A stretch of DNA of 64,000 nt from Hyphomicrobiales bacterium (GTDB lineage: Bacteria; Pseudomonadota; Alphaproteobacteria; Rhizobiales; Xanthobacteraceae): assembly GCA_017305715.1 (NCBI GenBank), contig JAFKKG010000008.1, forward strand, positions 124,001 to 188,000. The letters run 5' to 3'. The position numbers and the translations under genes were made by a program. Position 1 is the stretch's first letter. Each line of letters starts with the position of its first letter. The notes below the pieces were generated by a model. It did no database searches and was not told where the DNA came from. It was given only the letters and a program-made list of their open reading frames with translations. Of this stretch, positions 3 through 51,442 are shown in pieces.

Positions 3-683
3 TTCGTCTACACCAGCACCACCAGCGTGTTCGGCGACGCGCTGGTGCCGCCGCCGGACGAGCCGGCTGCCTGGGTGACGGAGGACGTCGTCCCGGTGCC
101 GAAAAACATCTACGGCGTCACCAAGGCGGCGGCCGAGGATCTGTGCCAGTTGTTTTCGCGCAACCGTTCCCTGCCCGCGGTCGTCTTGCGCACCTCGCGC
201 TTTTTTCCCGAGGAGGACGACAATCGCGCCGTCCGCGAAGGTTTTGCGGACGCCAACACCAAGGCCAACGAGTTTCTCTATCGCCGGGTCGATCTCGAGG
301 ATGTGGTGAGCGCGCATCTCGTCGCCATCAGCCACGCGCCATCTGCGGGCTTTGCAAAATACATCATCAGCGCCACGACGCCGTTCTCGCATGGGGACGT
401 CGCGGAATTGCGCCGCGGCGTCACGCTTGTGCTGCGACGCTACCTGCCCGATTTTGAACTGGAATATGCCCGGCGCGGCTGGCGCATGATCTCCGGCATC
501 GACCGGGTTTACGTCAACGACCGAGCGCGCGCCGAGCTCGGCTGGCGGCCGCGCCACGATTTCCGCGCCCTGCTGGCGCGGCTGCAGGCCGATGACGACA
601 TCCGCAGCCCGCTTGCGCGCGCCGTCGGCAGCAAGGGCTATCACGACCGGACTTTCCGCGACGGCCCCTATCCGCTGGAGTGA
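3..683 (+). CDS. NAD-dependent epimerase/dehydratase, 5' end missing
   Basis: Carboxy-terminal 226 residues of an extended short-chain dehydrogenase/epimerase; the start lies left of the window. The visible part opens with a TSTTSVFGD-like strand and soon has YGVTK, the Tyr-xxx-Lys catalytic pair of the family. The later segments (VVLRTSRFFPE, then VDLEDVVSAHL) match the substrate-binding half of sugar-nucleotide epimerases. The Rossmann GxxGxxG motif is outside the window, so cofactor type is inferred from the family. The substrate cannot be told. A 1 kb repeat-rich gap follows, so no operon partner is visible downstream. Confidence 0.85.
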   Translation, partial: FVYTSTTSVFGDALVPPPDEPAAWVTEDVVPVPKNIYGVTKAAAEDLCQLFSRNRSLPAVVLRTSRFFPEEDDNRAVREGFADANTKANEFLYRRVDLEDVVSAHLVAISHAPSAGFAKYIISATTPFSHGDVAELRRGVTLVLRRYLPDFELEYARRGWRMISGIDRVYVNDRARAELGWRPRHDFRALLARLQADDDIRSPLARAVGSKGYHDRTFRDGPYPLE

Positions 684-5233: not shown

Positions 5234-6637
5234 CTACTTCGGCGCCTCCGCGAATGCCGCCAGGATCCGCGCCCAGGAGCGGATGCCCTTGTGAAAACTC
5301 TTGAGGTCATACTTCTCGTTCGGCGAGTGGATGTTGTCGTCGTCGAGGCCGAAGCCGACCAGCACGGTATCGAGCCCGAGCGTGCGCTTGAAATCCGCCA
5401 CGATCGGGATCGAGGCACCGGAGCCGATCAAGAGCGCTTCCTTGCCCCATTCATCGGTCAGCGCCTGCTTGGCGGCGGCGAGCGGCTTCATGTTCCAGTC
5501 GAGCGCAATCGCCGGGGCGCTGGAGTGATCGACGAATTCGGCCTTGCAATCGCCGGGGAGCCGCGACGTCACATAATCGCGAAAGGCCTTGCGGATTTTC
5601 TCCGGGTCCTGTCCCTCGACCAGGCGGAACGAGATTTTTGCCGAGGCCTCCGCCGCGATGACCGTCTTGGAGCCTTCGCCGGTGTAGCCGCCGACGATGC
5701 CATTGATGTCGCAGGTCGGGCGCGAGGACACCTGCTCGATCAGCAGGCGGTCCTTTTCACCGGCCGGAATGGAAAGGCCGATCGGTTTCAGGAATGATTC
5801 CGGCGTGAGGTTGAGATTCTTCCACTGCGCCAGGATTTCCGGCGGCAGATCCTTCACGCCGTCATAGAAGCCGGGAATGGTGATGTGGCCGTTGTCGTCG
5901 TGCAGGCCACCGAGAATCCGCGTCAGCACCCGGATCGGGTTTTGCGCGCCGCCGCCGAAGATGCCGGAATGCAGATCGCGGTTGGCGGCCTTGATCTTGA
6001 CCTCGTCATAGACGAGCCCGCGCAGCGCGGTGGTGATCGCCGGGGTGTTCTGGTCCCACATGCTGGTGTCGCAGACGAGGGCAAAATCCGCCTTCAGGTC
6101 GGACTTGTTGCTTTCGAGGAAGGGGACGAAATTCTTCGAGCCGACTTCCTCCTCGCCCTCGATCACGATGGTGATGTCGACCGGCAGCGATCCCGTCACC
6201 GATTTCCACGCGCGGCAGGCCTCGACGAAGGTCATCAATTGCCCCTTGTCGTCCTCGGCGCCGCGCGCGACGATGATCTTGCGGCCATCGGCATGGTCGG
6301 TCACGGCGGGTTCGAACGGCGGACGGTGCCACAGGTTCAGCGGGTCGACCGGCTGCACGTCGTAGTGACCGTAGAACAGCACATGCGGCCGCCCGCCGCT
6401 GCCGCCATTGGCTTTGGCGACGATGGCCGGATGACCCGCCGTCGGCCGCACCTCCGCTGTGAAGCCGAGCGTCGCGATGTCCCTGGCCAGATGATCGGCG
6501 GCGGCCTTGCAGTCGCCGGTGAAGGCCGGATCGGCCGAGATCGACTTGATCCGCAACAGGGCAAACAGCCGTTCGAGAGAATTGTCGAAATCGGCATCGA
6601 TGCGGTCGAGGACCGGCTGAAGATTTGCGTTGGCCAT
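5234..6637 (-). CDS. M20 family metallopeptidase (dipeptidase)
   Basis: 467 residues, full length for the M20 dipeptidase/CNDP group. The two-zinc site is visible in order: His and Asp in FYGHYDVQP, Asp in ARGAEDDKGQ, catalytic and bridging Glu pair in VIEGEEEVGS, Asp in LVCDTSMWD, and a C-terminal His in NIHSPNEKY. It should hydrolyse dipeptides or related amide substrates in the cytoplasm; no signal peptide is present. GGGGAA lies upstream of the ATG at 6637. The gene behind it on the same strand ends 12 bp away, so they may form a pair, although the functions are not obviously linked. Confidence 0.9.
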   Translation of the reverse strand: MANANLQPVLDRIDADFDNSLERLFALLRIKSISADPAFTGDCKAAADHLARDIATLGFTAEVRPTAGHPAIVAKANGGSGGRPHVLFYGHYDVQPVDPLNLWHRPPFEPAVTDHADGRKIIVARGAEDDKGQLMTFVEACRAWKSVTGSLPVDITIVIEGEEEVGSKNFVPFLESNKSDLKADFALVCDTSMWDQNTPAITTALRGLVYDEVKIKAANRDLHSGIFGGGAQNPIRVLTRILGGLHDDNGHITIPGFYDGVKDLPPEILAQWKNLNLTPESFLKPIGLSIPAGEKDRLLIEQVSSRPTCDINGIVGGYTGEGSKTVIAAEASAKISFRLVEGQDPEKIRKAFRDYVTSRLPGDCKAEFVDHSSAPAIALDWNMKPLAAAKQALTDEWGKEALLIGSGASIPIVADFKRTLGLDTVLVGFGLDDDNIHSPNEKYDLKSFHKGIRSWARILAAFAEAPK

Positions 6638-6649
6638 CGCGTGTTTCCC

Positions 6650-7972
6650 CTAATTGTGGGCGGTGGTGTTGGCGTGGATTTGTAGCCCGCTTGTGGCTTC
6701 AGGCAAAGCGGCGGCAGCACCGGCCGGCGCCGGATCCAGGATGTGCCAGACCAGCCCCGCCGTCAGCAGCGCGGTCGCGGCGAGATTGTTGCCATAGGCC
6801 TGCAAATCGTTCGGAAACACCGGCAGCGACAGCAACAGCAGCAAACCCGCAACGGCCAGCAGCGCCCAGGTGGCGGCCTTGACCGCGGGCCGCGGATCAT
6901 AGGCCGCGCGGTGCATCAGGACCGTCATCGGGAAGAACAGCCACAGGAAATAATATTGGCGCGCCAGCGGCGACGCCACCGTCATCAGGCAGAACAGGAT
7001 GCCGATTTCCTCGGCGTCCGATTTTTCCGTTCGGCGCGAGGCCGGCGGCATCACCGCGAGATAGCCGAGGCCGATCAGGAGCGACACCGCGAGCACGATC
7101 AGGTTCGCCGTCTTGAAATCGACGTCGACGATATTCATGGTGCGCACGGGTTTCGACGGATCGTCCTGATTGTAATTCACCGGCCGCGTCAGGCGGTGCG
7201 TCACCGCGATGATGGACTGGTTGACCCAGCACCAGTTCTGCTCGTCGCGCTGGCCGAACCCTTTCTCCGAGCTCGAACCGACCATGCCCTGGTACCAGTT
7301 CTTCAGTTCCGTGACATTGTGCTGAAAGCCGCGAAACGGCGCCGGCAGCACGAACAGGAACACGACGAGGAATACCAGCATGCTGGCGGCAGAAGCCCAC
7401 TGCCGGCGCCAGATCAGATAGGGGAACACCGCGACCGGAAACACCTTGATGGCGGTCGCGAGCGCGAACATGCCGCCCGCCATCCAGCCACGCCGATCGC
7501 GCAGCAGCCAGAAGCCGTACAGCATCAGGGCCAGCAAAACGAGATTCGGCTGCCCGAGATCGAACATGTCGAACACAAAGGTGACGGTGACGAAGCCCGG
7601 TAGCGCTTCCAGCCAAGGACCGGGCTTGTGTCCCGACCCCGCCATCGCGTGCGAGTACTGCGCCGTCATCCACCACGCGACGATGTTGAGGAATGACAGG
7701 CAGAGATAGAGCGGGATCTTGCCGAAGTAACTCGGGATCGCCAGCAGCAGCGCCGACAGCGGTGGATAGATGAAGTCGAAATAGGTGGCGGGATTGTCGG
7801 GATAGAGGCTCTTGCCTTGCAGCACCTGCTGGCCGGCCCAGAACCACAGCGGATAATCCTTGGTCTTGCCGTTGCCCCAGATTTCCGGGACCAGCACGTC
7901 CGCGGTCAAGGCGATGCAGCAGAGCAGGAACAGGATATCGAGCGGCGCTCGCAACGACGGATATCTCAGCAC
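6650..7972 (-). CDS. GT87-type (DUF2029) polytopic membrane glycosyltransferase
   Basis: 440 residues with about ten hydrophobic segments spread over the whole length. The N-terminal stretch LFLLCCIALTADVLVPEIW and the following loop with DYPLWFWAGQQVLQGKSLYP and the FDFIYPPLSALLLA segment match the glycosyltransferase family 87 pattern (polyprenyl-phosphate-sugar-dependent mannosyltransferases of the PimE type). The start is GTG. The acceptor is unknown. It lies 12 bp upstream of the M20 dipeptidase and is read into it. Confidence 0.75.
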   Translation of the reverse strand: MLRYPSLRAPLDILFLLCCIALTADVLVPEIWGNGKTKDYPLWFWAGQQVLQGKSLYPDNPATYFDFIYPPLSALLLAIPSYFGKIPLYLCLSFLNIVAWWMTAQYSHAMAGSGHKPGPWLEALPGFVTVTFVFDMFDLGQPNLVLLALMLYGFWLLRDRRGWMAGGMFALATAIKVFPVAVFPYLIWRRQWASAASMLVFLVVFLFVLPAPFRGFQHNVTELKNWYQGMVGSSSEKGFGQRDEQNWCWVNQSIIAVTHRLTRPVNYNQDDPSKPVRTMNIVDVDFKTANLIVLAVSLLIGLGYLAVMPPASRRTEKSDAEEIGILFCLMTVASPLARQYYFLWLFFPMTVLMHRAAYDPRPAVKAATWALLAVAGLLLLLSLPVFPNDLQAYGNNLAATALLTAGLVWHILDPAPAGAAAALPEATSGLQIHANTTAHN

Positions 7973-48033: not shown

Positions 48034-48481
48034 GCGCAGGGAATGCCGGATGCGCGCTGCACCCGCGGTCTCATGTGCAATGTGCACAAGGAAGTGCGCA
48101 CATGAGCATACAGGGCAGCGGAGAACATCCGACATTCCCTGCGCGATGGCTTTACGGCTTATAACGTGCTCTCCCCGGAGAACGGCTCTTTTGCCTCCGT
48201 TGCGCCCTGGGAAGTCAGACGCCTCCCAGGTGCTTTGACGCCAGCAACGCGACGTCGGGACCACACGCTTTTGCCGTACGCCTTTGTCGCGCGCGTCAAG
48301 CGCCACATCAGCGTCCACCGCTCCCCGCCCAACGTCCGTGACGACGGCCGACGCCCTTCTGACCAGGACGGGATGGGCACAGTCGTAGCCCTGATTTGGC
48401 ATTTCGGAAAAGCGAAATATTTTTTATTTTGGGCCTTGACACGACTTCTGTAAATCGGAAGGTGATTTGCCCGTCGGGCCA
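48034..48481 (+). repeat. Long structured dispersed repeat, copy B
   Basis: Same orientation as copy A (1061-1511) and about 93% identical by eye. The outer stem is 48034-48052 with 48126-48144. The small 3' stem is CTTCTG (48445-48450) with CGGAAG (48456-48461), where a G-U pair replaces the G-C pair of copy A. Differences concentrate in loops and in the middle part. It ends 41 bp before the stop of the double-glycine peptide gene 48523-48705. Confidence 0.8.
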
Positions 48482-48522
48482 TCTGGTCGCAAGCGCACGT
48501 CCTATTCGCGGCGCTCTACCCG

Positions 48523-48705
48523 CTATTTCCTGCAGGCGCCGCCGACGAATTCCTTGCCGTACCAGATAGCCCAGCAACCGCTGTCGGGATTGATCTGGAT
48601 CGTCACCGGCCCAATGCCGACTTCGAGCACCTTGCCGCCACTGACCTGATCGAGTTCATTATCACCGAGGATAGGGACGTTCTGAGCCGCGATGTACCCC
48701 GTCAT
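48523..48705 (-). CDS. Double-glycine leader peptide, C-x13-C core (peptide 1)
   Basis: 60 residues. A leader of 24 ends in NELDQVSGG, the double-glycine motif cut by C39 peptidase exporters in bacteriocin-type peptides. The 36-residue core begins KVLEVGIGPV and has C44 and C58 separated by 13 residues, with FVGG just before the second Cys. GGAG lies eight bases before the ATG. A TGTGA-N6-TCACG palindrome is 77 nt upstream. The divergent SDR gene shares that region. Whether it kills, signals or is modified is unknown. Confidence 0.75.
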   Translation of the reverse strand: MTGYIAAQNVPILGDNELDQVSGGKVLEVGIGPVTIQINPDSGCWAIWYGKEFVGGACRK

Positions 48706-48782
48706 GCTGGTTCTCCGTTGATTTGCACGTCAAGTCGCCGAGAGATCGACCATGAGCCATAGGAGGTTCGCGTCATTTAGTC

Positions 48783-48798
48783 TGTGAGCTTCGTCACG
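48783..48798. promoter_or_regulatory. CRP-like palindrome TGTGA-N6-TCACG, site 1
   Basis: Lies between divergent genes: 77 nt upstream of the peptide-1 start (minus strand) and 40 nt upstream of the SDR start (plus strand). Same core as the two other sites upstream of peptides 2 and 3. Confidence 0.65.
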
Positions 48799-48838
48799 CC
48801 ATCTGCTACAGTGCCTCGAAACAACAAAGGAAAACAAA

Positions 48839-49609
48839 ATGGATCTGGGTCTGAAGGGAAGAAGCGCCGTCGTGCTCGGCGGCACGCGCGGCATCGGAAG
48901 GGCGATCGCTGATACGCTGGCCGGCGAAGGCGGCAACGTCGCGGTTTGCGCGCGCAACGCCGAACAGGTCGCGGGCACCGTTGCCGAGCTGAAAGCAAGG
49001 GGCGTGAAGGCCACCGGCGCACCGGTCGACATCACCGACGCGGCCGCGCTGAAATCATGGATCGGCCATGCCGCCGCCGAACTCGGCAGCATCGACATGC
49101 TGTTCTCCAACGCCGGCGCGATGGCGCAAGGCGGCGATCCCGCATCCTGGGAGCAGAATTTCCGGCTCGACGTGCTGGGCGCGGTCAATGCGTTCGAAGC
49201 GGCGCGGCCGTTCCTCGAAGCCAGCGGCGAGAAGAGCGGCGATGCCGCCTTCGTCATCATCTCCTCGGTTTCGGCGGCACAGGCCGAAAACGCCAGTTCC
49301 TACGGTCCGATCAAGGCTGCGCTGGTGCACATGGCCAAGGGACTGGCGCGGCAATACGCGGCAAAGAAGATCCGGGTCAACGTGGTGTCGCCGGGCACGG
49401 TCTATTTCAAGGGCGGCGTCTGGCACATGGTCGAGCAGAACATGCCGAAGCGCTATCAGGACACGCTGGCGCGCAACCCGACCGGCCGCATGGCAACGCC
49501 GCAGGAGATCGCCAACGCCGCCGTATTTCTGGCGAGCCCGGCATCCTCGTTCACGACGGGCTCAAACCTGATCGTCGACGGCGCGATCTCGAATCGCGTG
49601 AATTTCTGA
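48839..49609 (+). CDS. Short-chain dehydrogenase/reductase
   Basis: 256 residues, classical SDR. The cofactor motif is GGTRGIG (residues 14-20), followed by the NAGA structural motif at 91-94. The catalytic Ser lies in IISSVSA, with Y155 and K159 in SSYGPIK. The C-terminus RMATPQEIANAAVFLASPAS, then TTGSNLIVDGA, is typical of enzymes acting on 3-oxoacyl or sugar substrates. It sits among the double-glycine peptide genes and has the first TGTGA-N6-TCACG site 40 nt upstream. A role in that system is possible but unproven. Confidence 0.9.
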   Translation: MDLGLKGRSAVVLGGTRGIGRAIADTLAGEGGNVAVCARNAEQVAGTVAELKARGVKATGAPVDITDAAALKSWIGHAAAELGSIDMLFSNAGAMAQGGDPASWEQNFRLDVLGAVNAFEAARPFLEASGEKSGDAAFVIISSVSAAQAENASSYGPIKAALVHMAKGLARQYAAKKIRVNVVSPGTVYFKGGVWHMVEQNMPKRYQDTLARNPTGRMATPQEIANAAVFLASPASSFTTGSNLIVDGAISNRVNF

Positions 49610-49655
49610 GGCGTGGTTTTACGCGGCAACGCGACGCACGCCGCAACGCCGGCAT

Positions 49656-49671
49656 CGTGATCGCTGTCACG
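49656..49671. promoter_or_regulatory. CRP-like palindrome CGTGA-N6-TCACG, site 2
   Basis: A perfect inverted repeat in its arms, 74 nt upstream of the ATG of peptide 2 (49746) and 46 bp after the SDR stop. Confidence 0.65.
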
Positions 49672-49745
49672 CCGGCGCGCGGCGCCGTCCGGCATGTTCT
49701 CCGTCGCGGTGAACAATGGTGTTCATCGCCAGCAAGATTGAGATC

Positions 49746-49949
49746 ATGACCATAACAACACGCAACCTGACGGACACCGACCTGAACGAAGTTTCGGGCG
49801 GCAAGCCCAATCTGGGCGGTTACACCTACTGCTTCATTCCCGGCACCAGGGAGGGTCTTTATGTCGGCGGCTGCCCCTCGGCGCCGATGACATGGGGAGA
49901 TTTCATGGGTGCTTTCACCAGCATCGTCCGATCGGGCGGCAGGCGGTAA
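49746..49949 (+). CDS. Double-glycine leader peptide, C-x13-C core (peptide 2)
   Basis: 67 residues from the ATG at 49746. The leader MTITTRNLTDTDLNEVSGG is 19 residues and ends in the double-glycine cut site; it closely resembles peptide 1 (ELDQVSGG). The core has C29 and C43, again 13 residues between, with YVGG before the second Cys. It is otherwise richer in Gly/Pro and ends SIVRSGGRR. An ATG at 49716 would add ten hydrophobic residues (MVFIASKIEI) and fits the leader type less well. A strong terminator follows. Confidence 0.75.
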   Translation: MTITTRNLTDTDLNEVSGGKPNLGGYTYCFIPGTREGLYVGGCPSAPMTWGDFMGAFTSIVRSGGRR

Positions 49950-49956
49950 TCGCCGC

Positions 49957-49987
49957 GAAAGAGGCCACCCGGTCGGTGGCCTCTTTC
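49957..49987 (+). terminator. Rho-independent terminator after peptide 2
   Basis: Perfect 13-bp stem GAAAGAGGCCACC with GGTGGCCTCTTTC and a 5-base loop, starting 8 bases after the stop codon. The A-rich 5' side and T-rich 3' side are inside the stem, so it could work in both directions. Confidence 0.8.
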
Positions 49988-50000
49988 ACCTCGCCGGCTA

Positions 50001-50016
50001 TGTGACGTCAGTCACG
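50001..50016. promoter_or_regulatory. CRP-like palindrome TGTGA-N6-TCACG, site 3
   Basis: 80 nt upstream of the ATG of peptide 3 (50097) and 13 bp after the terminator of peptide 2, so peptide 3 appears to have its own promoter. Confidence 0.65.
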
Positions 50017-50096
50017 GCGGCGACCCGACCCGTGTCGTATCCCTGCCATCACGGATGGCGGGAATGGTCTCGCTCCAACGATAACGGGAGACGTCA

Positions 50097-50279
50097 ATGA
50101 CCAAGTTCAAGCATTTCGATCGCAACGACCAGTCGGCCCTGATCGACGACGCACAGCTCGATGTCGTTGTGGGCGGTACCCAGGCGGATGATTTTGCCAA
50201 ATTCCGTGCGGCCGGTGAAGTTGGCGGATGGTTCATGAAGGACATCTGGACCAAGCCCACGCTCGGCACCTTCCACTAA
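50097..50279 (+). CDS. Double-glycine leader peptide without cysteines (peptide 3)
   Basis: 60 residues. The leader ends in DDAQLDVVVGG and is followed by a 33-residue core TQADDFAKFRAAGEVGGW and on, with no cysteine, two tryptophans and a second GG. GGGAG sits before the ATG. The leader has the same acidic, Leu-Val-GG pattern as peptides 1 and 2, but the core is unrelated to theirs. A LuxR-type gene is convergent 59 bp downstream. Confidence 0.7.
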   Translation: MTKFKHFDRNDQSALIDDAQLDVVVGGTQADDFAKFRAAGEVGGWFMKDIWTKPTLGTFH

Positions 50280-50338: not shown

Positions 50339-51442
50339 TCATCGCAGGCGGCTGACAACGGCGATCAGTTCGCCCTGCCGGTGCGTCGCGGTCTTGCGGA
50401 ATACCGACTTCAGATGCGATCGCGCCGTTTCCTGCGCAATCGCCATTTCCTGCGCCGCTTGCTCGAGCGATTTACCGCCGGCCAGACACAGCGCAAGCCG
50501 CGCTTCCGAAGGCGTGAGCAGGAATGCCTGGCGCAGCATGGTCAATTGCTCGGGCTCGCGTTCGTCAAAGCCGGAAAAGATCAGAATGGCCCGGGCGCCG
50601 AGAAACGGGCTGCGCGCCGCGCCATCGACCGGGAGAACACGCACGACGACCGGCAGCTTGCCGTCGCGGCGGATCACGATGGGCGCCACAGCAAGCGCGT
50701 CGCGGTCGGTGGCCGTTCGCAAGCGATCGAGGAATGCGTTGAAGGCGGATTGCGCCCGCCTGTCGCGGATGACGAGGCGCTGACCCGCCAGGCTGATATC
50801 GTCACCGAAGATGACTTCCGCCACCGGATTGACGTCGAGCACCGATCCGAAACGATCGAGCGCAATGGCGGGCCGCTGGATGAAGGCGAGCGCATTCGTG
50901 ACGTTGGATAACACCGCCCTTCCTACCGACGTGGACAGGGTCGCGGTCTCCGTCAACCGTTGCGACAGATTGGCGAGCGCGATCTTTTCAGATTCGTCAA
51001 AAGCGCCCTCGCCGATCGTGCGCTGAATGGAAAAACCCCAGAGCGCCGGGCCTGCAAAAAAGCCGACCGCCGCAAACCAGCGCAGCCCGTAGCCGTTCAG
51101 ATGCGCGTAAAGCGGATCGCGGAGCATTTCGCTTTCGGACGTGAAGATGTCCTGGTCGCTGACGACCTGGCGCCCGGCCAACAACAACGGCACGGCGCGG
51201 GCCGCGCGGATGTCGGCTTCATGATAGTGACCGTCGAAATAGGATTTGAAATATTCCCGCGCGGACTCCGTCATGGGAACGTCGGGCGTGCGGACGTCGC
51301 TTTGCAGCAGGCACGCTCCCATCGCGCCGCTGGCGCTGCAAATGTCCTGCATCAGGACAGGCCACATCGCAGGATCGATCACCGCATCGCCCAGCCGGTT
51401 GCTGATCGACTGCAACCGCTCAATGTCCACCTTGCCTGCCAT
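50339..51442 (-). CDS. LuxR-type transcriptional regulator
   Basis: 367 residues. The C-terminal helix-turn-helix (LTPSEARLALCLAGGKSLEQAA, then AIAQETARSHLKSVFRKT) is of the LuxR/NarL class. The rest includes a PAS-like middle (NALAFIQRPAIALDRFGSVLDVNP) and an N-terminal ligand or signal domain (ICSASGAMGACLLQSD). No receiver domain or autoinducer-domain signature is evident. It lies beside the double-glycine peptide genes, convergent with peptide 3, and is the only regulator gene there; control of those genes is inference. Confidence 0.88.
   Translation of the reverse strand: MAGKVDIERLQSISNRLGDAVIDPAMWPVLMQDICSASGAMGACLLQSDVRTPDVPMTESAREYFKSYFDGHYHEADIRAARAVPLLLAGRQVVSDQDIFTSESEMLRDPLYAHLNGYGLRWFAAVGFFAGPALWGFSIQRTIGEGAFDESEKIALANLSQRLTETATLSTSVGRAVLSNVTNALAFIQRPAIALDRFGSVLDVNPVAEVIFGDDISLAGQRLVIRDRRAQSAFNAFLDRLRTATDRDALAVAPIVIRRDGKLPVVVRVLPVDGAARSPFLGARAILIFSGFDEREPEQLTMLRQAFLLTPSEARLALCLAGGKSLEQAAQEMAIAQETARSHLKSVFRKTATHRQGELIAVVSRLR

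What the first reader, a model, noticed from the sequence alone, without database searches (positions are those of the whole stretch)
48783..50016. Same TGTGA-N6-TCACG palindrome upstream of all three peptide genes
Sites at 48783-48798 (TGTGA-N6-TCACG), 49656-49671 (CGTGA-N6-TCACG) and 50001-50016 (TGTGA-N6-TCACG) lie 77, 74 and 80 nt before the start codons of peptides 1, 2 and 3. GTGA-N6-TCAC should occur about once by chance in 64 kb, and I noticed one other match, inside the RND pump gene (43951). Three at matched distances before one gene class point to a shared regulator of the CRP/FNR type, or to another factor with the same half-sites. Site 1 could also drive the divergent SDR gene.
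Basis: partly seen in the sequence, partly recalled or inferred. Interest (0 to 1): 0.85.

Follow-up and report, generated by a model that had tools for sequence, protein, structure and literature searches.

The report
CRP-type switch shared by peptide genes
In this soil bacterium the same DNA switch, of the well-known CRP (cyclic-AMP receptor) kind, stands in front of most of about thirty scattered genes for small, probably exported peptides, so these peptides are probably turned on together.

Summary
The three palindromes lie 77, 74 and 80 nt before three double-glycine (GG)-leader peptide genes and belong to a genome-wide pattern. A leader-only HMM finds 30 GG peptides in the own, probably Bradyrhizobium, genome: 21 of 30 have an exact GTGA-N6-TCAC 65-95 nt upstream, 3 have one just outside that range, 4 match 7 of 8 arm bases, 2 have none. 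In 13 other genus genomes 19 of 23 examined GG peptides have it. Arms are kept while the spacer varies (47 distinct N6 in 53 sites). An A lies exactly 23 nt after the site in 52 of 53 stacked promoters, the exception being an artefact. This implies a -10 box with the site centred at -41.5: class II CRP geometry. A profile of two CRP-type paralogues with the R-E helix pair has two or more matches in 58 of 60 genus genomes; these are the likely activators. GG peptides look accessory, the CRP promoters core. Site 1 fits the divergent SDR gene poorly. Binding, ligand, activation and peptide function are inferred.

The parts
48783..48798 (-). Operator 1, CGTGACGAAGCTCACA read towards peptide 1, 77 nt before its ATG
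   Evidence: an intact palindrome also precedes the peptide-1 homologues in G090 and G012
48756..48761 (-). Predicted -10 hexamer TATGGC of peptide 1, at +22..27 after the operator
   Evidence: consensus from 53 promoters
48523..48705 (-). Peptide 1 gene (60 aa), leader ...NELDQVSGG then core KVLEV...
   Evidence: leader HMM E 4.6e-6
49656..49671 (+). Operator 2, CGTGATCGCTGTCACG, 74 nt before the peptide 2 ATG at 49746
49693..49698 (+). Predicted -10 hexamer CATGTT of peptide 2
49706..49729 (+). Predicted stem-loop in the mRNA leader of peptide 2 (10 bp stem, loop ATGG); the loop holds the upstream ATG (49716) of the longer reading, so 49746 is the likelier start
   Evidence: z -3.0
49746..49949 (+). 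Peptide 2 gene (67 aa), leader ...DTDLNEVSGG
50001..50016 (+). Operator 3, TGTGACGTCAGTCACG, 80 nt before the peptide 3 ATG
   Evidence: orthologue alignment
50038..50043 (+). Predicted -10 hexamer TATCCC of peptide 3
50057..50074 (+). Predicted stem-loop in the mRNA leader of peptide 3 (GGCGGGA-ATGG-TCTCGCT)
   Evidence: RNAalifold on 8 homologues; 2 of 9 pairs with a change on both sides
50097..50279 (+). Peptide 3 gene (60 aa), leader ...DDAQLDVVVGG
48839..49609 (+). Divergent SDR oxidoreductase gene; neighbour, poorly fitted by operator 1
50339..51442 (-). LuxR-type HTH protein gene; neighbour, also found beside peptide 3 in G085 and G012

Best explanation
Each palindrome is the operator of a class II promoter of the CRP kind. 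A cyclic-nucleotide-activated CRP-like dimer binds YGTGAY-N4-RTCACR centred at about -41.5, overlapping the -35 region, and recruits RNA polymerase to a -10 box of the form YA(T)nnY. Transcription then starts about 34 nt after the site and about 40-46 nt before the ATG of the three window genes, through a short leader that often folds into a stem-loop. The three window peptides belong to a regulon of about 30 dispersed GG-leader peptide genes in this genome, set among non-GG targets that include type I secretion parts. The likeliest activator is the CRP-like protein at C40:392149-392889 (helix TRESINK) or its paralogue at C41:261136-261810 (helix ARESVNR). The peptides are probably trimmed after GG and exported by the one C39-peptidase (NHLP-type) ABC exporter found in the genome. 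Shown here by computation: sites, spacing, conservation, -10 block, co-occurrence with GG peptides. Inferred: which CRP binds, its ligand, activation, transcript start, export and peptide function.
For: Chance expectation and coordinates. Conservation in homologues with changing spacer. Leader-HMM hits in the own genome (E up to 10 allowed, weakest 0.4): 21 of 30 exact at 65-95 nt, 3 of 30 exact at 56, 57 and 104 nt, 4 of 30 with 7 of 8 arm bases, 2 of 30 none. Among the 12 own hits not picked through the site, 8 have 7 or 8 arm bases at 65-95 nt, against 1.5% of all 46-nt stretches of the window and 2.4% of random stretches of site-enriched own loci. Relatives: 19 of 23 loci exact, 16 of 20 without the three already picked through the site; several of these loci are copies of one another, so they are not all independent. 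-10: A at +23 in 52 of 53, the exception being a wrong-strand artefact. The coupled pattern YA...Y peaks at +23 in 45 of 53 GG promoters (mean over offsets 2.2) and in 22 of 98 non-GG oriented sites (mean 4.4, next highest 9). Promoter pattern counts: 68 in G000 and 69 in G012, the two genomes with most GG peptides, against mean 28.2 (11-44) in the other 58. CRP candidates: best solved matches 3i54 (E 8e-39; M. tuberculosis CRP, recalled) and 7pza (E 9e-32), R-E of the candidates aligned with R-E of 3i54; TRESINK in 79 and SRESINK in 1 of the 80 kept of 231 named relatives of the C40 protein; a profile of both proteins has two or more matches in 58 of 60 genomes and one in G006 and G041 (which paralogue each match is was not checked). 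The C41 CRP gene has a 7-of-8 site 67 nt before its presumed start with TAGGGC at +22. PMC5449483 (section 5 and passages read) lists M. tuberculosis CRP as binding TGTGA-N6-TCACA-like sites and places Bradyrhizobium CRP sequences with Actinobacteria.
Against: No binding or transcript data. The exporter operon has no 7- or 8-base site within about 550 nt before its HlyD gene, so peptide and exporter expression may not be coupled. GG peptides L131 and L134 (own) and L143, L148, L158 and L162 (relatives) have no site of 7 or 8 arm bases. The -10 block is off by one nt in two further promoters outside the 53: L008 (peptide-1 homologue of G012) and L133. The excess of promoters with GG peptides rests on two genomes; among the other 58 the rank correlation is 0.15, p 0.26. 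The two CRP paralogues cannot be told apart here. Most of the leader HMM was trained on peptides first found through the site.
Confidence: 0.83

Rival explanations
1. The site is bound by another CRP/FNR member (FixK, NnrR or FNR type) that senses oxygen or nitric oxide rather than a cyclic nucleotide.
For: 13 PF13545 matches are over the cut-off, about 10 of which look like CRP/FNR proteins (L018-L027, read by eye); class II geometry is common in that superfamily (recalled).
Against: FixK/FNR boxes have TTGA-TCAA arms (recalled); here the outer G and C of the arms are kept in the intact homologues. The FixK-like proteins L019 and L020 have IETVSR and LETVSR helices without the Arg-Glu pair. 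Two others (L024, L027) have Arg-Gln and are not excluded.
Confidence: 0.1
2. The local LuxR-type protein (50339-51442) binds the palindromes and controls the peptides, as a peptide or quorum circuit.
For: It lies beside peptide 3 and a relative (75-82% identical) is found there in G085 and G012.
Against: Not found in 8 of 10 related peptide loci tested, although these are about 3 kb or shorter; its HTH match is just below the Pfam cut-off (22.4 against 23.5 bits); the promoter pattern occurs in 60 of 60 genus genomes, of which 14 have GG-leader hits at E 1e-4.
Confidence: 0.04
3. Duplication only: the three sites are alike because the peptide genes are recent copies of one another.
For: All three downstream genes share a leader type.
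Against: Spacers and peptide cores differ; 47 distinct N6 among 53 sites; columns more than 6 nt upstream of the site carry almost no information; unrelated non-GG genes share the site and -10 block.
Confidence: 0.02

Closest known systems
E. coli / M. tuberculosis CRP class II promoters (TGTGA-N6-TCACA)
   Same: Arm sequence and length; site centre deduced at -41.5; R-E pair in the recognition helix of the candidate proteins
   Different: Target class: dispersed GG-leader peptide genes; outer bases relaxed to Y and R; loose -10; ligand and binding untested
Sinorhizobium meliloti Clr regulon (PMC10127613, passages read)
   Same: CRP-like regulator of a rhizobium; the C41 paralogue's best solved match is 7pza, a code that occurs in that paper; Clr consensus GTNNCNNNNGNNAC overlaps GTGAC-N4-GTCAC
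   Different: Here GA and TC at the inner arm positions are kept in intact homologues, whereas the Clr core leaves them free; helix RESVNR against RPKVNR
Bradyrhizobium FixK2 / NnrR regulons
   Same: Same superfamily, same genus (inferred)
   Different: Different arm sequence (recalled) and different helix
NHLP / GG-leader peptide and C39 exporter systems (PMC3140520, passages read)
   Same: GG leaders and a TIGR03794/03796/03797 exporter over its cut-offs
   Different: Precursors are scattered over the genome, with one found at the exporter; few leaders match the NHLP (3 of 21 scanned) or Nif11 (1 of 21) leader models, weakly

Membership tests
CRP-type operator | Palindromic GTGA-N6-TCAC arms conserved with free spacer | tested here: met
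CRP-type operator | A CRP protein with the Arg-Glu recognition-helix pair in the genome | tested here: met
   the meaning of the pair for GTGA is recalled
CRP-type operator | Cyclic-nucleotide-dependent binding | not testable with these tools
   needs EMSA or ITC; both candidates match the CRP equivalog model below its cut-off (65.5 and 106.1 against 266 bits)
Class II CRP promoter | Site centred near -41.5 with a fixed -10 | tested here: met
   A at +23 in 52 of 53; off by one in L008 and L133; start point deduced, not mapped
FixK/FNR box | TTGA-N6-TCAA arms | tested here: not met
   GTGA/TCAC arms; the TTGA rule is recalled
GG-leader (class II bacteriocin-like) peptide | LxxxELxxVxGG-type leader on a short ORF | tested here: met
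   window peptides 1 and 2 match the bacteriocin signal model below its cut-off and peptide 3 not at all
GG-leader (class II bacteriocin-like) peptide | Export and antimicrobial or signal activity | not testable with these tools
   needs secretome and activity assays
NHLP exporter | HlyD, peptidase-ABC and second ABC subunit in one gene run | tested here: met
   all three over curated cut-offs

The most novel reading that the evidence does not exclude
A dispersed peptide regulon built from a movable module: CRP class II operator, -10, leader-RNA hairpin and GG leader stay together while the peptide core behind GG changes, so that a core cyclic-nucleotide CRP fires dozens of different exported peptides at once through one exporter, with the RNA hairpin as a second shared control layer.
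Probability: 0.3. Interest if true: 0.78.

Novelty: new variant of a known kind. Interest (0 to 1): 0.62.

Why it matters
It gives about thirty orphan peptide genes in one genome a common switch, a predicted transcript start and two named candidate regulators, so their expression conditions and functions become directly testable. It also provides a promoter signature for finding unannotated GG peptides in Bradyrhizobium. The ten literature searches made here showed no paper that, by its listed title or abstract start or the passages read, describes a CRP regulon of GG peptides in this genus; three of the listings were cut (20 of 203, 12 of 38, 12 of 67 papers) and most subscription papers are not in that library.

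Tried and rejected
Site 1 as an SDR promoter: poor fit. LuxR as general regulator: not supported. Exporter operon as a target: no site close before HlyD; the exact site first thought to drive it (C40:286980-287087) lies about 870 nt upstream of the HlyD start. An adenylate cyclase beside the C40 CRP gene was looked for among neighbouring ORFs of 180 aa or more and not seen (by eye, no domain search). Order-wide search for the leader HMM at E 1e-4: 1 of 150 genomes, the own one. The search for related loci with peptide 3 in genome contigs found no relative. Pfam on ten non-GG targets gave matches for 5 of 10: caspase-like, ABC, HlyD, RTX and OmpA. Passages of PMC10454721 and PMC6515984 added nothing used here. 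Structure prediction was not used.

Full report
Observation. The three palindromes are at the stated places. The window has 4 GTGA-N6-TCAC matches against 0.49 expected, and no shuffle of 100 reaches 4. They stand 77, 74 and 80 nt before the ATG of three short genes. The genes encode GG-leader peptides: peptides 1 and 2 match the bacteriocin signal model below its cut-off and peptide 3 not at all, but all three match a leader HMM built here.

Host. The closest named relatives of its C40 CRP protein, 96% identical, are Bradyrhizobium strains, so I infer Bradyrhizobium.

Homologues. Peptide 3 has matches in 9 of 146 genus genomes including the own one, peptide 1 in 3 of 146, peptide 2 only in the own. 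In 8 of 9 peptide-3 loci the arms GTGA and TCAC are intact at the aligned place while the spacer differs; the ninth copy (G012) has a stop codon in the gene and a damaged left arm, though its -10 block is intact. All three peptide-1 loci have an intact palindrome, 77, 62 and 106 nt before the ATG.

Genome-wide association. In the own genome GTGA-N6-TCAC occurs 209 times against 5 for the reversed control; how many of the 209 lie in coding DNA was not counted. Looking behind sites followed by an ATG revealed many further GG peptides. I then searched by leader alone with E up to 10: 30 hits, the weakest at 0.4. Exact site at 65-95 nt: 21 of 30. Exact at 56, 57 or 104 nt: 3. Seven of eight arm bases: 4. 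None: 2. Since most HMM rows came from site-selected peptides, the fair subset is the 12 own hits not picked through the site: 4 exact and 4 with 7 of 8 within 65-95 nt, 2 exact outside, 2 none. By comparison 1.5% of all 46-nt stretches of the window, and 2.4% of random stretches of the site-enriched own loci, hold 7 or more. In relatives, 23 of the 28 non-own hits came with DNA; 18 of 23 have the exact site and one more (L152, 66 nt). Leaving out three that were in the HMM through the site gives 16 of 20. L143, L148, L158 and L162 lack it. Some of these loci are copies of one another (L149, L154, L156 and L159; L146 and L153; L147 and L151), so they are not all independent.

Promoter anatomy. 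Stacking 53 promoters on the site (one is a wrong-strand artefact, L117 +) shows a second conserved block at a fixed distance: Y at +22 (49 of 53), A at +23 (52 of 53, the exception being the artefact), T at +24 (27 of 53), T or C at +27 (49 of 53). The stack was selected on the arms, the start distance and the GG reading frame, not on this block, so the block is independent evidence. Outside the stack, the three own exact sites at 56, 57 and 104 nt and three of the four 7-of-8 sites also have A at +23; L133 and L008 are off by one nt. If that A is the -11 base of a -10 box (recalled), the site centre is at -41.5, which is class II CRP geometry (recalled; PMC5449483 passages describe class II sites as overlapping -35). 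The same block is found at +23 in 22 of 98 non-GG oriented sites, the mean over offsets being 4.4 and the next highest 9. Sites 2 and 3 have the block only towards their peptides; site 1 has TATGGC towards peptide 1 and AACAAC towards the SDR gene.

Regulon. The pattern site plus -10 occurs in 60 of 60 genus genomes, 11-44 times (mean 28.2) in 58 of them, but 68 and 69 times in G000 and G012, the two with most GG peptides (17 and 11 at E 1e-4). The simplest reading is a core CRP regulon into which GG peptides were recruited in bulk in some species. This rests on two genomes: among the other 58 the rank correlation is 0.15 (p 0.26). Non-GG targets with the -10 block include type I secretion ABC and HlyD proteins, an RTX protein, a caspase-like protein, an OmpA-domain protein and small proteins with N-terminal hydrophobic stretches seen by eye.

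Regulator. Thirteen PF13545 matches exceed the cut-off; about ten (L018-L027) look like CRP/FNR proteins. In two of these (L021 at C41, L022 at C40) the recognition helix has Arg-Glu in the CRP place (ARESVNR, TRESINK), as read by eye. L022 aligns best to 3i54, which I recall as M. tuberculosis CRP (SRETVNK in the alignment), L021 to 7pza, a code that occurs in PMC10127613 on S. meliloti Clr (passages). Both keep the FGE...RSADATA stretch of the nucleotide pocket (meaning recalled). A profile of the two gives two or more matches in 58 of 60 genomes and one in G006 and G041; the helix is TRESINK in 79 of 80 kept named homologues and SRESINK in one. The C41 gene has a 7-of-8 site 67 nt before its presumed start (the site overlaps a longer possible reading frame) with TAGGGC at +22, so it may be autoregulated. 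I cannot say which of the two acts at the window sites.

Export. One C39-peptidase match is found in the genome, in an NHLP-type exporter gene run (TIGR03794, 03796, 03797 over cut-offs), on another contig. Its HlyD gene has no site of 7 or 8 arm bases within about 550 nt upstream, while a GG peptide at the end of the run has its own. That this exporter serves the scattered peptides is inference.

Leader RNA. The GG transcripts' predicted leaders fold more than expected: mean z -1.19 in 52 GG leaders, -0.39 in 26 non-GG sites with the -10 block, -0.07 in 117 sites without it (first made). The stem often closes an ATGG, ATGA or ACGG loop and varies in sequence; in 8 peptide-3 homologues 2 of 9 pairs show changes on both sides, a modest signal. 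In peptide 2 the loop contains the upstream ATG, so 49746 is the more likely start.

Novelty. Operator and mechanism are of a known kind. A dispersed set of GG peptides under one CRP-type class II promoter is, as far as the ten searches named under Why it matters show, not described for this genus. PMC10253576 (listing only) reports CRP control of bacteriocin export in another bacterium, so CRP and bacteriocins have been linked before.

Noticed in passing
window 49706-49729 and 50057-50074; leaders: Many GG-peptide mRNA leaders share a predicted stem-loop soon after the predicted transcript start, often with an ATGG-type loop; role unknown.
   Followed up: partly
L021:956-971 (C41 crp gene): The C41 CRP-like gene carries a 7-of-8 CRP site 67 nt before its presumed start with a -10-like TAGGGC, suggesting autoregulation.
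   Followed up: partly
L012 / L162 (G012:C170): A peptide-3 homologue with a stop codon in the gene also has a damaged operator arm, while its -10 block is intact: gene and switch seem to decay together.
   Followed up: no
L072:1757-1772 and 1794-1809: Two exact palindromes 21 nt apart before the GG peptide at the end of the NHLP exporter gene run.
   Followed up: no
L086:6037-6052, 6135-6150 and 7915-7930: Several exact sites around a divergent type I secretion ABC / HlyD pair, some with the -10 block.
   Followed up: partly
window 48159-48482 and L001 minus strand near the site at 490: Similar reading frames (RRPSSRTLGGERWT... SQGATEAKEPFSGEST) beside two separate GG-peptide loci look like a dispersed repeat.
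   Followed up: no
L049:1593-1656: Two palindromes (CGTGAACGGGTTCACG and CGTGAAGGACCTCACG) 32 nt apart within a locally repeated stretch, of another make-up than the GG operators.
   Followed up: no
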